The position numbers were made by a program, and so were the translations under genes. This document shows, piece after piece, positions 3-57,657 of a stretch of DNA of 64,000 bases; within the stretch, counting starts at the first letter, position 1, and every line of letters begins with the position of its first letter. Where the stretch lies: NCBI RefSeq assembly GCF_014696385.1, contig NZ_JACJQB010000011.1, forward strand, positions 1-64,000, written 5' to 3'. A model generated the notes under the pieces. The model worked only from the letters and a program-made list of their open reading frames with translations, did no database searches and was not told the origin of the DNA. The DNA is from Pseudanabaena mucicola FACHB-723. GTDB lineage: Bacteria; Cyanobacteriota; Cyanobacteriia; Pseudanabaenales; Pseudanabaenaceae.

Positions 3-446
3 CCCTATGCTTGGCAAGAGAAAGGGACGGGTTTAAGCTTACCCAGTCAACGCAGTAAGAGGTTAAATGTCGTGGGTTTGATGAATCGAAACAATGACTT
101 ATCTGCTTATGTTTTTGAACGCAGTATCACCAGTGCAGTCATTCTCGCTTGTATCGATGACTTTGCTCGTCAATCTACCAAGCCAACAGTGATTGTTATG
201 GATAAAGCCTCTATTCATACCAGTCAACTGATTCAAGAGAAATTAGAGCAGTGGAAGAACCAGCAAGTTGAGATTTTCCAGTTACCCCCTTATAGTCCCC
301 AGTTGAACTTGATTGAAATTTTGTGGCGTTTCATGAAGTATGAGTGGATTGAACTCAATGCATATGAATCTTGGGAAAGTTTAGTCTCTTATGTTGAAAA
401 AGTTCTTCGAGACTTTGGTTCAACTTATGTAATTAATTTTGCTTAG
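3..446 (+). mobile_element. IS630-family transposase, C-terminal part (5' end outside window)
   Basis: The reading frame is open from the window edge, so this is the 3' part of a gene that starts upstream; an internal ATG at 72 is not the real start. The protein carries the C-terminal half of a DDE transposase of the IS630/Tc1 type: a DKASIHTS segment with a catalytic Asp, then PPYSPQLNLIEILWRFMKY, which holds the last acidic residue and the usual conserved proline/tryptophan context. The upstream stretch GLSLPSQRSKRLNVVGLM is also typical of cyanobacterial IS630 copies. Whether the element is intact cannot be judged because its left end is missing. The stop is normal and no frameshift is seen. 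Confidence 0.85.
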
Positions 447-6823: not shown

Positions 6824-6878
6824 AAAACTCAATAATCGGGCAGCGGCGCTTCGCGCCGCTGCCCGATTATTGAGTTTT
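6824..6878. repeat. Long perfect hairpin with GGCGC-TTC-GCGCC core, 3' of rnc
   Basis: Two 26-base arms (6824-6849 and 6853-6878) are exact complements around the triplet TTC. The centre GCGGCGCTTCGCGCCGC is shared with several other intergenic palindromes in the window while the outer arms differ. It begins five bases after the rnc stop codon and ends in T-runs on both strands, so it may also terminate transcription. Confidence 0.8.
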
Positions 6879-6883
6879 CTGTC

Positions 6884-7657
6884 CTATTTTGAATTTGTGT
6901 CCGCTTGCATTTTTTCTAAGGCAATTGCCGCCGCCGCTTGTTGAGCGGCTTTGATACTTTTTCCCTGTCCTTGTCCCCAACAGCGATCGTCAAACCATAC
7001 TTCGACGCAAAAAAGGGGTTGCTTTATCTGATCTGATGTCTGAAGTGCCAGATTGCAATCTACATTGCGATATTCAGGTAAACGTTTCCAGCGTCCTTGA
7101 GTTAGCTCTTGGAGGGCAACTTTATAATTTCCTAAGGCAGGGATCGCGAGTAACTCGGTTGCAAATTTTTGCATATGCGGATCGAGCCATTGCCTGACAA
7201 AGGCTAAATCTTGCGTACTGATATATAGAGCCGCCATTAGTGCTTCGAGGGCATCAGCCAATAGCGATCGCAATGCTTGGGTATCATTACGGGCTGCATT
7301 GGATACGACCACATATTTTTGGAGATTGTAAATACCTGCAATCTGAGCAAGGGTCTGGTCACTCACTAGGTGCGATCGCAGTGCTGCTAAATCCCCCACT
7401 TTGCGATCGCCATAGTGTTCTTTCAAAAATAAACTCACTGATAGTCGCAACACACTATCGCCCACAAACTCTAGTTGATCATTGTTATAGGTTGTTGAAA
7501 AACTGGGATGGACTAGCGCCTGATCAAGCAACATCCAATCAAATCCCTGAGCCTTAACCGATGGATTAGCTTGTTCTAATTTGGCTTGATCTAGTCCCAT
7601 TTGATCTAATAAGCGGACTAATTCTCTGTGGCGACGTGGATCAATGGTGGATGGCAT
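6884..7657 (-). CDS. rnc: Ribonuclease III
   Basis: A double-strand-specific endoribonuclease for rRNA and mRNA processing. The signature NNDQLEFVGDSVL carries the catalytic acidic residues, ALRSHLVSDQTLAQIA and LLADALEALMAALYIS (second acidic cluster, Asp/Glu) follow, and a C-terminal dsRNA-binding domain begins at about NYKVALQELTQGRW and ends with AAQQAAAAIALEKM. The start is placed at the ATG at 7657 (MPSTIDPRR); the upstream in-frame TTG at 7675 overlaps the divergent gene's leader and adds six unconserved residues. Total 257 residues, normal for the family. A separate Mini-RNase III is encoded at 35182. Confidence 0.92.
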   Translation of the reverse strand: MPSTIDPRRHRELVRLLDQMGLDQAKLEQANPSVKAQGFDWMLLDQALVHPSFSTTYNNDQLEFVGDSVLRLSVSLFLKEHYGDRKVGDLAALRSHLVSDQTLAQIAGIYNLQKYVVVSNAARNDTQALRSLLADALEALMAALYISTQDLAFVRQWLDPHMQKFATELLAIPALGNYKVALQELTQGRWKRLPEYRNVDCNLALQTSDQIKQPLFCVEVWFDDRCWGQGQGKSIKAAQQAAAAIALEKMQADTNSK

Positions 7658-7712
7658 GAGACTTTGCAGATACAATTACAGCAACTTTATCAACATGATC
7701 GTAGTTCAAACC

Positions 7713-12673: not shown

Positions 12674-12720
12674 TGACGAGTGGCGGCGCGTAGCGCCGCC
12701 ATTCGTTTTCTGGTTTTATG
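12674..12720. repeat. Decayed palindromic repeat, GGCGC-GTA-GCGCC core
   Basis: Core GGCGGCGCGTAGCGCCGCC with imperfect outer arms (ACGAGT/ATTCGT) and the flank TTCTGGTTTTATGTCCT, which matches the right side of the copies at 13404 and 23676. It appears to be a shortened member of that family. Confidence 0.65.
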
Positions 12721-12767
12721 TCCTCAGCAAAACTTTTTTTGCTATATAAGTAGCTAGGCATAATTAA

Positions 12768-12823
12768 AACCCAAAGCTAAAACCTGTGACGCACGCGCAG
12801 CGTGCGCCACAGGTTTTAGGGTT
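12768..12823. repeat. Inverted repeat with GCGCACGC-type core
   Basis: AAAACCTGTG and CACAGGTTTT form perfect outer arms around ACGCACGCGCAGCGTGCGC, itself palindromic, with AAACCC/GGGTTTT further out. A fragment of a similar core (CGCACGCGCAGCG) recurs at 32661, so this is a second palindrome family. Confidence 0.65.
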
Positions 12824-12886
12824 TTATATTTAATTGCGCCCAGTTATTTAAAACATATCTTCAAGAAAATTAAGGCATTTTTATCC

Positions 12887-13399
12887 ATGCAAATTCGGTT
12901 GGCAATAGAGGCAGATTTGCCTACGATTATCGAAATTTATAATGCTTCTATACCTAGCCGTCTTGCCACCGCAGACCTTGAGCCGATCACTGTAGAGAGT
13001 CGTCGTACTTGGTTCCGATCCCATGACGATCGCTATCCTGTGTGGGTAGCAACCATTGGCGATCGCAACATTCAAGGCGATCAAAATGAGCAAATTATTG
13101 GTTGGCTAAGTTTGCAGATGTTTTACGGTCGCCCTGCCTATCACAAAACCGCAGAGGTCAGTATTTATATAGATCCTAACTATCAAGGTCAAGGTATTGG
13201 CAAACAGTTACTCGATTTTGCGATCGCACAATGCCCTAAGCTTGGCATTTCTAAACTAGTCGGCTTCATCTTTGCCCACAATGCCGCTAGCTGTCATTTA
13301 TTTCAAAAATTTGGGTTTCAACAATGGGGATTGTTGCCACAGGTGGCGGAATTAGATGGCCAAGAACAAAGTTTACTGATTCTTGGCAAAAGTATTTAG
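12887..13399 (+). CDS. GNAT-family N-acetyltransferase, phosphinothricin-acetyltransferase type
   Basis: A 170-residue GNAT enzyme. It opens with the characteristic MQIRLAIEADLPTIIEIYN and shows TVESRRTWFRSHD, the acyl-CoA binding motif YQGQGIGKQLLDFAI (Q-x-x-G-x-G), and HNAASCHLFQKFGF, the C-terminal elements shared with PAT/bar-like enzymes that acetylate phosphinothricin or methionine sulfone/sulfoximine. The real substrate in this organism is unknown. Length is normal. A member of the dispersed palindrome family begins five bases after the stop. Confidence 0.88.
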   Translation: MQIRLAIEADLPTIIEIYNASIPSRLATADLEPITVESRRTWFRSHDDRYPVWVATIGDRNIQGDQNEQIIGWLSLQMFYGRPAYHKTAEVSIYIDPNYQGQGIGKQLLDFAIAQCPKLGISKLVGFIFAHNAASCHLFQKFGFQQWGLLPQVAELDGQEQSLLILGKSI

Positions 13400-13403
13400 C
13401 TTA

Positions 13404-13518
13404 TATAGTTACTGCTATTTGGATTAAGACCAATCAAAACCCAAGAAGCGAGTTGCGGCGCGAAGCGCCGCAACTCGTCTTCTGGTTTTGTGTCTTAACA
13501 AGACTGGCGACAGCTATA
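13404..13518. repeat. Palindromic MITE, TATAG ends (family copy 1)
   Basis: About 115 bases. Imperfect terminal repeats TATAGTTACTGC... and ...GCGACAGCTATA enclose GTTAAGACA/AAAACCC-type arms and a perfect core stem GAGTTGCGGCGC-GAA-GCGCCGCAACTC. It shares a long near-identical stretch with the copy at 23676 (including TCTTAACAAGACTGGCGACAG). It fills the gap between the GNAT and methyltransferase genes. Confidence 0.8.
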
Positions 13519-23675: not shown

Positions 23676-23788
23676 TATAGCTATTGTCACTTGGATTAGG
23701 AAAACACAAAACCCAAGAAGAGAGTTGCGGCGCGAAGCGCCGCAACTCGTCTTCTGGTTTTGCGTCTTAACAAGACTGGCGACAGACA
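23676..23788. repeat. Palindromic MITE, TATAG ends (family copy 2)
   Basis: Starts TATAGCTATTGTCACTTGGAT, has core stem GAGTTGCGGCGC-GAA-GCGCCGCAACTC, and ends TCTTAACAAGACTGGCGACAG. Nearly identical to the copy at 13404 over most of its length; the far right end has decayed (no clear CTATA). It separates secF from the small membrane-protein gene. Confidence 0.8.
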
Positions 23789-26292: not shown

Positions 26293-26400
26293 TATAGCTA
26301 TAGTCAAGTAAGACAAAACCCAAAAGAGAGTTGCGGCGCTTCGCGCCGCAACTCTCTTTTGGGTTTTGGTTTTGTCTTAACATAGATGGCTACAGTTATA
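26293..26400. repeat. Palindromic MITE, TATAG ends (family copy 3, best preserved)
   Basis: A 108-base near-perfect inverted repeat: TATAGCTATAGTC at the left, complement of TATAACTGTAGCC at the right, then AAGACAAAACCCAAAAGAGA-type arms and the core GTTGCGGCGC-TTC-GCGCCGCAAC. It lies upstream of secD and contains no ORF. The rest of the 26250-26585 gap holds only this element, AT-rich text and the mscS terminator. Confidence 0.85.
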
Positions 26401-32688: not shown

Positions 32689-32756
32689 TATAGCTGTAAG
32701 CCCAAAAAGCGAGTTGCGGCGCTTCGCGCCGCAACTCGCTTTTTGGGTTTTATATA
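32689..32756. repeat. Palindromic MITE, TATAG ends (family copy 4)
   Basis: TATAGCTGTAAGCCCAAAAA, core GCGAGTTGCGGCGC-TTC-GCGCCGCAACTCGC, then TTTTTGGGTTTTATATAG. The perfect stem is over 20 bp. The right end overlaps the gatA stop codon (32750-32752, complement TAA). A broken GCGCACGCGCAGCG piece of the other palindrome family lies just to the left. Confidence 0.8.
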
Positions 32757-34210
32757 GCAGGCTGTTGTTGATGCCATGCCGTTGACTGCTCATAGCCATA
32801 GGCAACTTGCAATAACACATCTTCCCGCAATACATTGGCAATCATCTGCAAACCAATGGGCATTCCTTTAGAATCAAATCCACAGGGAATACTAATTCCC
32901 GGTAAACCTGCCAAGTTTACAGGAATGGTCATCAAGTCAGACAAATACATGCCAAGGGGATCTTCAGTTTTACTACCTGCCTTAAAAGCCGTAGTTGGGG
33001 CGGTTGGGCAAACAAGTACATCGACTTGTTCAAAGGCTTTTTGGAAATCTTGAACAATCAACGTTCTCACTTTTTGCGCCTTGAGGTAATAGGCATCGTA
33101 ATAACCTGCCGACAAAACATATGTACCGATCATGATCCGTCGCTTTACTTCTGCACCGAAGCCTTGCTCACGTGTATTTTCGTACATCTTTAGCAAGTTA
33201 TCCGCATTCTCATCACGGAAACCATACTTTACGCCATCATAGCGAGCAAGGTTTGCAGACGCTTCCGAAGGCGCAATGATGTAGTAGGTGGGCAAGCCAT
33301 AGCGGAAGCGAGGACAAGAGATTTCATAGACCTCTGCACCCATACTCTCCATATGTGCGATCGCATTTCTGACTGCGGTTTCCACTTCGCTATCTAGCCC
33401 TTCGCCAAAGGTTTCGGTAATCACACCAACTTTTTTGCCCTTAAGGGATTGGGTTAAATCGGGTGTTAATAATGAAGCGTAGTCAGGAATTTTAGTGTTA
33501 ATGCTGGTGGAATCTTTAGGGTCATAGCCCGCGATCGCACCCAAGAAAATTGCCGCATCTTCAACGGTATTGGCAAAAGGCCCGATCTGGTCAAGGGACG
33601 AGGCAAAAGCAACTAGTCCAAAGCGAGAGACTAAACCATAGGTCGGCTTGAGCCCAACCACACCACAGTAAGAAGCAGGTTGCCGAATCGAACCACCTGT
33701 ATCAGAACCCGTGGCAATTACACATTCGCCACTTGATACTGCTGCCGCCGAACCACCTGATGACCCACCGGGTACATAGTCAGTATTCCAAGGATTAGCG
33801 GTTAAGGCGATCGCCGAGTTTTCGGTGGAGCTACCCATGGCGAATTCATCGAGGTTGGTTTTGCCTACCATCACTGTGCCCGATGCTCTCAACTTGGCGG
33901 TAATGGTGGCTTCGTAGGGGGGCGCAAAATTTTTCAGCATCTTCGAGCCGCAGGTGGTGGGCATTCCCTTGACACACATGTTGTCTTTCATGCCCAGTGG
34001 CACACCCGCCAGTGCAGGCAAATTTTCCCCTGCGGCGATGGCGGCATCAATAACTTTTGCCTGTGCGATCGCAACTTCTGGGGTAACGGTCACAAAACTA
34101 TGTAATTTCGGCTCTAACCGATCAATCCGATCTAAAAAATCTTGAGCAATTTCGGTTGCTGATCGCTCTTTATTTAATAAGGTTTGGCGAATTTGGGCGA
34201 TCGACATCAT
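32750..34210 (-). CDS. gatA: Glutamyl-tRNA(Gln)/aspartyl-tRNA(Asn) amidotransferase subunit A
   Basis: Releases ammonia from glutamine and, with GatB and GatC, converts Glu-tRNA(Gln) to Gln-tRNA(Gln). The 486-residue amidase has the Ser-cisSer-Lys site: [12 protein letters not shown] (Lys), [20 protein letters not shown], and [19 protein letters not shown] (both Ser). Family markers [23 protein letters not shown] and [13 protein letters not shown] follow. Two ATGs are adjacent at the start. The last two or three codons and the stop lie in the end of a palindromic element, so the natural C-terminus may have been altered slightly. Confidence 0.95.
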
Positions 34211-42559: not shown

Positions 42560-42600
42560 CAGAAATATTTTTAAAAGCGTCGCTTTTAAAAATATTTCTG
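42560..42600. repeat. 20-bp perfect hairpin
   Basis: CAGAAATATTTTTAAAAGCG (42560-42579) with its exact complement at 42581-42600 around one T. The same AGAAATTTTTAAAAG theme recurs in the hairpin at 57437-57489. It sits between the binding-protein gene and the glycosyltransferase cluster. Confidence 0.75.
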
Positions 42601-54389: not shown

Positions 54390-54455
54390 TATAGCCTTTA
54401 AAATCCAAGAGTAGGGTTGCGGCGCGAAGCGCCGCAACCCTCTATCTTAGCTATA
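54390..54455. repeat. Palindromic MITE, TATAGC/GCTATA ends (family copy 5)
   Basis: TATAGC at 54390 and GCTATA ending at 54455 enclose a perfect core AGGGTTGCGGCGC-GAA-GCGCCGCAACCCT. A second, more decayed fragment of the family (TGCCGCCATTCATCTTCTGGG) lies just to the left at about 54350. It sits between accA and the TPR gene. Confidence 0.75.
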
Positions 54456-54463
54456 AATTGCAA

Positions 54464-55561
54464 TTATTTGATTTCCGCTAATACCTTCCGAGTTTGCGCT
54501 AAACCATCAACATTGCCCTGTTGATTAAAGAATCGCTCGGCATTTTGCAACATTTTTCTCGCTTCATCTAAACGCTGTTGCTCTGCCAATAATTTTCCTA
54601 ATGCCAAATAAGTACCTGCATCCTCTGGCAATGTATCAAGGACTTGGCGATAGGCAACAATTGCCCCCGACAGTTGCCCTTGTTGTATATAAATCTTGGC
54701 AATTTCTTTTTGAATATTTGCCGAAGTTGCAGGAGCCATGCTGCGATTGAGTGCGGCTCGACGCAGTGATGTAATTGCTTCGGTATAGTTACCTTGAGAT
54801 TGAAAAACTTTTGCGATCGCAAGATTAGCTTGAGGATGACGAGGATTAACATCTAGCGCCCGTTTGTATTTAGCAATTGCCTCCTCTTGTTGGTTTCTCT
54901 CGGCAAATAAATCAGCAATCGCCACCAAGACATCGGCATTGAAGGGGGCAACTTGATCGGCTTGTTGATAGGCAGCAAAGGCGGCTTGACTGTCCCCTGC
55001 CAACTTCAGCACATAGCCTAAATTGAGGTGATTTTTGGCTTCCCTCGGTGCAATGGCGATTGCTTGGCGATATATTTTCGCCGCCTCGGTATAGTTTTTC
55101 TGTTCCGTCAATAAAAAGCCAATGCTGTTATAGGCATCAATATTATTGCGATCGAGGGCAATCACACGGCGATAAGCTGCGATCGCATTGGGATAGTCAT
55201 TAACCCTGACATACACAAAACCCAACGCACTAAAAGCCCTCGTGTTTTTAGCATCTATTTGAGTAGCCCTTTCTAAGGCACTAATCGCACCTGAATAGTT
55301 TTGTTGCTGCGTTAGTAAAAAACCAAGACTCGTCAGAATGCGAGAATTTTTTGGCTCCAAATTCGCAGCCTGCTGATAGGCGGCGGTTGCGCCTGTAATG
55401 TCATTTTTTTTCCAAAGATCCCGCCCCTGCTTAATCCATTCCGTGGCATCTTTTTTAGCCTGAGCATAGGCAGTTTGGATCGGCATCGCAGTGATCGTCC
55501 CAGCGATCATTGTCGCTAATGACAGGCGAGCGAGTGTAGTTACTGAGCGAAACAAGCGCAT
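54464..55561 (-). CDS. Exported tetratricopeptide-repeat protein
   Basis: A 365-residue TPR protein. A signal peptide covers residues 1-33 (LARLSLATMIAGTITAMPIQTAYAQ, likely cut after AYA). At least eight 34-residue TPRs follow, such as AYQQAANLEPKNSRILTSLGFL, YPNAIAAYRRVIALDRNNIDAYNSIG and YRQAIAIAPREAKNHLNLGYVL. TPR arrays scaffold protein complexes; the partners are unknown. The next gene upstream encodes a pentapeptide-repeat protein 13 bases away on the same strand, so they may be co-expressed. Confidence 0.9.
   Translation of the reverse strand: MRLFRSVTTLARLSLATMIAGTITAMPIQTAYAQAKKDATEWIKQGRDLWKKNDITGATAAYQQAANLEPKNSRILTSLGFLLTQQQNYSGAISALERATQIDAKNTRAFSALGFVYVRVNDYPNAIAAYRRVIALDRNNIDAYNSIGFLLTEQKNYTEAAKIYRQAIAIAPREAKNHLNLGYVLKLAGDSQAAFAAYQQADQVAPFNADVLVAIADLFAERNQQEEAIAKYKRALDVNPRHPQANLAIAKVFQSQGNYTEAITSLRRAALNRSMAPATSANIQKEIAKIYIQQGQLSGAIVAYRQVLDTLPEDAGTYLALGKLLAEQQRLDEARKMLQNAERFFNQQGNVDGLAQTRKVLAEIK

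Positions 55562-56308: not shown

Positions 56309-57657
<1,349 letters not shown>

What the first reader, a model, noticed from the sequence alone, without database searches (positions are those of the whole stretch)
26293..26400. Dispersed palindromic miniature elements with TATAG ends and a GGCGC-N3-GCGCC core
Seen directly: copies at 13404-13518, 23676-23788, 26293-26400, 32689-32756 and 54390-54455, plus core-only relatives at 6824-6878 and 12674-12720. The core GTTGCGGCGC-(GAA/TTC)-GCGCCGCAAC is nearly constant, the ends are TATAGC-like, and copies 1 and 2 share over 90 bases. Every copy is intergenic. That is at least seven in 64 kb, so hundreds per genome may exist. Inference: a non-autonomous element family mobilised in trans, or REP-like hairpins with a role in mRNA ends. 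No transposase with matching ends is seen here.
Basis: partly seen in the sequence, partly recalled or inferred. Interest (0 to 1): 0.6.

Follow-up and report, generated by a model that had tools for sequence, protein, structure and literature searches.

The report
Capped hairpins: mobile elements and terminators
In one genus of cyanobacteria the same 17-letter hairpin tip sits, in tens to hundreds of copies per genome, both on small mobile DNA elements and on hairpins placed right behind genes, where it probably helps to stop transcription.

Summary
The constant part is a 17-nt hairpin tip, GCGGCGC-N3-GCGCCGC: 7 exact copies in the window, 120 in the 3.96-Mb genome, 36-614 in each of 26 Pseudanabaena genomes searched, 0 in 9 genomes of other genera of the family.

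Two populations share the tip. (1) MITE-like elements of about 115 bp with TATAGC...GCTATA ends. They insert at TA (two empty sites read, one with both TA copies) and show no gene-orientation preference. (2) Bare hairpins with many different stems, base a median 4 nt from a stop codon, 32 between convergent genes and 1 between divergent ones: terminator-like.

RAYT and DNA-uptake-sequence explanations fail. IS630-family elements with TATAGC ends occur in the genus; no exact parent was found.

In the best MITE family, stem changes hit both arms together (11, against 0.2 expected; one-arm 4, against 37). Some copies differ only by an inverted triloop: the known footprint of DNA template switching. 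Paired changes are nearly five times rarer in the tip than in the outer stem.

Best reading: mobile and resident terminators share a selected cap while template switching rewrites their stems. Termination is inferred; why different stems carry one cap is open.

The parts
6824..6878 (.). stand-alone capped hairpin, 26-bp perfect stem, 5 nt from the stop of the gene at 6884-7675 (-)
12676..12746 (.). capped hairpin with only the right element end (GCTATA), between divergent genes
13404..13518 (.). MITE-like copy, TATAG...CTATA ends, 4 nt behind the gene at 12887-13399 (+)
23676..23788 (.). MITE-like copy with left TATAGC end and decayed right end; no exact cap at this place in 13 relatives read
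26293..26400 (.). MITE-like copy (the finding), TATAGC...TTATA ends, hairpin 26314-26368
32689..32756 (.). capped hairpin 32701-32747 between convergent genes, 2 nt from the stop of the gene at 32750-34210 (-); 10 relatives read here have an ordinary terminator-type hairpin
54390..54455 (.). short copy with TATAGC and GCTATA ends, behind the gene at 54464-55561 (-)
6843..6859 (.). 17-nt cap of the first copy; the other caps start at 12683, 13455, 23727, 26333, 32716, 54419

Best explanation
One hairpin tip is shared by two populations. (1) Foldback MITEs of about 115 bp (TA|TAGC-N17-(G)GACA...GCTA|TA) that insert at TA, probably moved in trans by IS630/Tc1-mariner-type transposases, and carry a 24-26-bp hairpin with A-rich and T-rich arms that could end transcription on both strands. 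(2) Stand-alone hairpins, with stems differing from gene to gene, directly behind stop codons, acting as intrinsic terminators or 3'-end stabilisers in a phylum without Rho. During replication the hairpins undergo template switching, which copies one arm onto the other and flips the triloop, so stems drift fast while staying paired. Selection, most simply for quick and stable folding of the GC-rich tip, holds the 7-bp cap. Shown: the counts, the two populations, insertion at TA, concerted arm change, loop-only differences, slower change of the cap. Inferred: termination, IS630 as the mover, template switching as the agent, selection on the cap, and descent of some stand-alone hairpins from MITEs.
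For: Counts and genus restriction. Cap in 66 of 297 triloop hairpins against 1.8 or 6.8 expected by two models. Own genome, copies without ends: 32 tail-tail, 16 tandem, 1 head-head; 43 of 49 within 30 nt of a stop; tail-tail against head-head differs from random intergenic points, p about 2e-9, while ended copies do not differ. The same split in unbiased stretches and in G023. Empty sites at TA. IS630-type elements with TATAGC ends. F1 copies: 11 both-arm against 4 one-arm changes, 0.2 and 37 expected; two groups identical outside the loop hold both GAA and TTC. Paired changes in the cap 8 of 518 cells, outer stem 98 of 1362.
Against: No RNA data. IS ends match MITE ends no better than shuffled ones beyond the hexamer. 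In family F2 distinct one-arm changes (26) are as many as distinct both-arm ones (23), and F3 has 5 against 1. Loop orientation shows no bias to the sense strand and mismatches no G-U excess, so nothing in the sequence proves an RNA role. In other genomes the no-end copies lie farther from stops (median 22 nt, 0.49 within 30 nt, against 0.88 here; that set was fetched with a MITE-like pattern). At one of the two empty sites the right-hand TA and three bases are missing. Drafts may contain assembly errors at palindromes.
Confidence: 0.6

Rival explanations
1. All copies descend from the MITEs: stand-alone hairpins are old insertions that lost their ends and were kept because they terminate transcription; the cap is shared by descent only.
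For: A graded series of both, one and no ends (15, 40, 49 of 104); template switching can rewrite stems quickly; some no-end stems still begin AAAACCC.
Against: Many no-end stems have no likeness to MITE stems, and G023, with 37 copies, is mainly stand-alone (18 of 29 placed).
Confidence: 0.3
2. The cap is gained again and again on ordinary terminators by selection, for fold stability or for an unknown cap-binding factor, without transfer.
For: Capped gene ends differ between distant species (3 of 26 G023 records, two sites, have a capped hairpin at the same gene end among 105 own records, with different stems); the tip is held while the stem drifts.
Against: One exact 7-mer far ahead of all other GC-rich tips (66 against 19 for the next) is more than stability needs.
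Confidence: 0.3
3. REP/REPIN palindromes moved by RAYT (Y1) transposases.
For: Intergenic palindromes in high copy; 22 of 26 genus genomes have some Y1_Tnp match.
Against: No match in this genome (120 exact copies), G024 (614), G007 (396) or G021 (195); no constant tag beside the hairpin; insertion at TA.
Confidence: 0.03
4. An uptake-signal-like 7-mer that happens to pair up in terminators, as in Neisseria.
For: One short motif in many terminators.
Against: Outside hairpins the half-site is not over-represented: 111 against 113.5 expected.
Confidence: 0.02
5. Concerted arm changes come from compensatory selection on RNA, or from conversion between MITE copies, not from template switching.
For: Paired changes are also the classical sign of RNA selection; many related copies are present to convert one another; whole stem blocks are shared between copies.
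Against: Loop-only inversions in copies identical at 113 other positions; one-arm intermediates rare in F1 (4); no G-U excess. Conversion from an inverted copy could still flip loops.
Confidence: 0.25

Closest known systems
RUP and SPRITE repeats of Streptococcus pneumoniae (PMC3049150, passages read)
   Same: Small intergenic repeats; RUP is thought to be moved in trans by IS630-Spn1; SPRITE is terminator-like and lies near 3' ends of genes.
   Different: Here one fixed tip occurs on many stems and on both mobile and stand-alone hairpins, the stems are longer and perfectly paired, and TA insertion was seen at empty sites.
DUS/USS terminators of Neisseria and Pasteurellaceae (PMC1852404 and PMC2397512, passages read)
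   Same: One short conserved motif makes up many terminator stems.
   Different: There the motif is also common singly; here the half-site is not enriched outside hairpins. Here it is the tip that is constant.
REP/REPIN and RAYT (PMC3116915 and PMC3733652, passages read)
   Same: High-copy intergenic palindromes.
   Different: No RAYT needed, no GTAG-type tag seen, TA insertion.
Template-switch mutations at hairpins (PMC8794818 passages; PMC8604942 abstract)
   Same: Arm homogenisation, multi-base compensatory change, loop or spacer inversion.
   Different: Seen here in a bacterial mobile element family, including copies identical but for the flipped loop.
GCGAAGC mini-hairpin DNA (PMC4686876, passages)
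   Same: The GAA form of the cap contains GCGAAGC.
   Different: Described there in oligonucleotides; whether it matters in the cell is untested.

Membership tests
MITE (copies with ends) | Short, non-coding, with terminal inverted repeats | tested here: met
   about 115 bp, TATAGC...GCTATA ends in families F1-F3
MITE (copies with ends) | Target-site duplication and empty sites | tested here: met
   two empty sites at TA; both TA copies at one, right copy missing at the other
MITE (copies with ends) | Ends match an autonomous element | tested here: inconclusive
   IS630-type elements share only TATAGC; six IS ends against 226 MITE ends were no better than shuffled
IS630-derived | TA target and IS630 transposase in the same genus | tested here: met
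   NF033545 for the two proteins tested
REP/REPIN | Associated RAYT (Y1) transposase | tested here: not met
   no match in 4 of 26 genomes, this one and G024 among them
Intrinsic terminator (copies without ends) | Hairpin then T-tract just behind genes | tested here: met
   position; window hairpins flagged by a pattern scan
Intrinsic terminator (copies without ends) | Transcripts end there | not testable with these tools
   no RNA data
DUS/USS | Single motif over-represented on its own | tested here: not met
   111 observed, 113.5 expected outside hairpins
SPRITE / RUP | Sequence membership of those families | not tested
   other phylum; only the way of working is compared
Rfam family | Match above gathering score | tested here: not met
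   0 matches in the window

The most novel reading that the evidence does not exclude
The 17-nt tip is itself the unit that spreads: hairpin tips are copied between unrelated hairpins in trans, by template switching between extruded hairpins, or are re-selected by a cap-recognising termination factor peculiar to Pseudanabaena. Gene terminators and mobile elements would then share one exchangeable cap, a termination or 3'-end code in bacteria without Rho.
Probability: 0.2. Interest if true: 0.85.

Novelty: new variant of a known kind. Interest (0 to 1): 0.58.

Why it matters
How cyanobacteria, which lack Rho, end most transcripts is open: in S. elongatus only 22% of transcription units have canonical intrinsic features (PMC13289151, abstract and passages). 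In the stretches sampled, this genus has about ten times more long perfect hairpins per kb than other cyanobacteria, many with one fixed tip behind genes: a large natural set of candidate terminators, with a mobile source of them. The near-identical element copies also record arm homogenisation and loop flipping, so template switching at palindromes could be measured directly in a bacterium.

Tried and rejected
RAYT-moved REP: rejected. DNA-uptake-like motif: rejected. Known RNA family: none in the window. Viral spread: the stricter 23-nt pattern had 0 hits in viral contigs; the bare cap was not searched there. Insertion of only the cap into an existing hairpin: no clean case; the one candidate (L407:2712 against G012) proved to be a capped hairpin in both, with one base different in the cap and a drifted stem. 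RNA-level signatures (loop orientation, G-U excess): none. G012 and G022 are little syntenic, so most of the 20 stretches gave no site comparison. An exact parent IS was sought in 30 DDE_3 loci and in these plus 20 further stretches, a part of the hits, and not found. Sharing of capped gene ends between G023 and this genome: 3 of 26 records, two sites. The end classes rest on short matches within 75 bp, so some 'one end' labels are chance: TATAGC lay within 150 bp of about 5% of random points per side. The backward control pattern gave 3 and 1 hits in two distant genomes of the class, 0 in the genus. In print: the listings showed no account of this hairpin in Pseudanabaena, and two REP surveys do not name the genus; subscription papers are not held. 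Elhai 2008 on very small repeats of cyanobacteria was not seen.

Full report
WHERE AND HOW MANY. The window lies in a 3.96-Mb draft genome of 94 contigs. The genome has 120 exact copies and 193 with up to one mismatch; the backward-read control has none there. Each of 26 genus genomes, this one included, has copies (36 to 614); 0 of 9 genomes of other genera in the family and 2 of 23 others in the class (one copy each) do; the backward control gave 3 and 1 hits in two other genomes of the class. A stricter 23-nt pattern had 0 hits in viral contigs.

WHAT IS CONSTANT. I compared 107 distinct own copies, then 106 with longer flanks and 205 from other genomes. Only the inner 7 bp and a triloop position are constant (the copies were chosen by them). 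The five pairs outside are Watson-Crick in 97-99% of own and 96-100% of other copies, falling to background past about 27 bp, yet the 106 own copies show 69 different 8-mers there. In stretches not chosen for copies, the genus has 203 long hairpins in 387 kb (0.525/kb) against 19 in 346 kb of other cyanobacteria (0.055/kb; three of the 20 control stretches are under 6 kb). In 838 kb of genus sequence, partly orthologous stretches of close genomes, 297 triloop hairpins have 229 GC-N3-GC tips and 66 GCGGCGC tips; the next 7-mer, AAATGGC, has 19. A position model of the other tips predicts 1.8 and a first-order model 6.8. Loops of capped hairpins are GAA/TTC in 45 of 66; GCGAAGC is reported as an extraordinarily stable DNA mini-hairpin (PMC4686876, passages).

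TWO POPULATIONS. With a simple codon-usage gene finder (66 genes in the window) I placed 104 own copies. Forty-nine have no element-like end within 15-90 bp: 32 tail-to-tail, 16 tandem, 1 head-to-head, hairpin base median 4 nt from a stop, 43 of 49 within 30 nt. Forty have one end (7/26/7; median 22 nt) and 15 both (3/6/6; median 48 nt). Random intergenic points fall 93/252/114. For tail-tail against head-head, no-end copies differ from these (p about 2e-9) and ended copies do not (p = 1). Elsewhere: other genomes, no ends 21/36/8 of 65, farther from stops (median 22 nt); unbiased stretches 9/19/2 of 30; the low-copy genome G023 11/5/2 of 18 (29 of the 30 copies read were placed, 1 fell in a predicted gene; it has 37). 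At window site 32716 the hairpin ends 2 nt from the convergent gene's stop; the 10 relatives read there all have an ordinary terminator-type hairpin, and one, G003, has a different capped hairpin besides. At site 23727 none of 13 relatives read has an exact cap.

THE ENDED COPIES ARE MITE-LIKE. Ends read TATAGC-N17-GGACA or close to it: the follow-on motif lies at spacing 17 in 169 cases, the next commonest spacing having 36, over 358 TATAGC ends. Two filled/empty comparisons (G012 filled, G005 empty) show insertion at TA; at one both TA copies are there, at the other the right-hand TA and three neighbours are missing. Of four ended sites comparable in close pairs three were absent from the partner and one present; three no-end sites were kept as hairpins, one with a one-base change in the cap: small numbers. 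One MITE of a G012 stretch has 30 further copies of 91-97% identity in G005. IS630-type elements of 1.02-1.11 kb with TATAGC ends occur in G003, G012, G022 and G024; the two proteins tested match NF033545; in three of the four the frame is split. Beyond the hexamer their ends match MITE ends no better than shuffled ones, so the mover is inferred.

HOW STEMS CHANGE. Family F1: 24 of 32 full-length copies (end divergence up to 12%, mean 3.1% per site) were kept. Stem pairs changed on both arms to another Watson-Crick pair 11 times and on one arm 4 times; independent change at the end rate predicts 0.2 and 37; distinct changes 9 and 4. F2 (44 of 53 kept): 92 and 39 cells after leaving out one pair not paired in the consensus, distinct 23 and 26, predicted 2.5 and 166. 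F3 (6 of 8 kept): 3 and 5 cells, distinct 1 and 5, predicted 0.1 and 14. Copies are related, so cells are not independent events. Two groups of F1 copies (six and three) are identical at all 113 other positions and hold both GAA and TTC loops. A no-end hairpin shared by G012, G005 and G022 shows one paired T-A to C-G change and loops ATT, ATC and AAT, the first and last being reverse complements. Another hairpin keeps its outer stem AAATTAATATA while the inner stem differs between species and stays largely paired. Arm homogenisation, multi-base compensation and loop inversion are the described footprint of template switching (PMC8794818 passages; PMC8604942 abstract). Against RNA selection as the driver: 13 GAA and 12 TTC loops on the sense strand, 8 G-U against 6 A-C among 49 mismatches. 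Caveat: most of these genomes are drafts, and assemblers can flip or smooth palindromes. Near-perfect stems are also seen in G023, a single contig; loop flips were not checked there.

WHAT IT MOST LIKELY IS. A genus-specific set of mobile and resident terminator-like hairpins with a shared, selected tip, whose stems are rewritten by template switching. A pattern scan flags the window hairpins at 23722-23748, 26319-26363 and 32701-32747 as terminator-like, a consensus match only. Cyanobacteria lack Rho (PMC13289151, abstract), so a heavy investment in hairpins is plausible. I cannot show termination, nor say whether stand-alone copies are worn MITEs, terminators that MITEs captured, or repeated gains; capped gene ends mostly sit at different genes in distant species.

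NEAREST KNOWN. It works like pneumococcal RUP plus SPRITE (PMC3049150, passages) and, in putting one motif into many terminators, like neisserial DUS terminators (PMC1852404, passages). It is not DUS nor REP/RAYT. New here, as far as the searches named above go: one cap shared by mobile elements and gene-end hairpins, and a record of loop flipping and arm copying in near-identical copies.

Noticed in passing
window 3-446 (+) and contig ends of G000: An IS630-type (DDE_3) element sits at about 30 contig ends of this genome, the window's left edge among them; its right end reads ...TTAGCTACTTA. It may be the parent of another palindromic MITE, AGTAGCTA...TAGCTACT.
   Followed up: partly
window about 12747-12840; L315/L320: Another palindromic MITE-like family with AGTAGCT...AGCTACT ends and CGCACGC-type tips; an empty site in G012 against a filled one in G022 suggests a TTA or TA duplication.
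   Followed up: partly
window 42560-42600 and 57437-57489: Hairpins with the stem CAGAAATATTTTTAAAA or close to it but other tips; elsewhere the same stem carries the GCGGCGC cap and TACAGC ends.
   Followed up: partly
genus loci: AAATGGC-N3-GCCATTT is the second commonest hairpin tip of the genus and may be a family of its own.
   Followed up: no
L274:13452-13568: In G012 a capped MITE has landed in the arm of what is an intact hairpin in G005.
   Followed up: no
near L268:17036 (G005) and orthologues in L235, L237, L239: A hairpin whose outer stem is kept while the inner stem and tip are replaced in each species, still largely paired.
   Followed up: no
window: GCGATCGC (the HIP1 palindrome, name recalled) occurs 101 times in 64 kb.
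   Followed up: no
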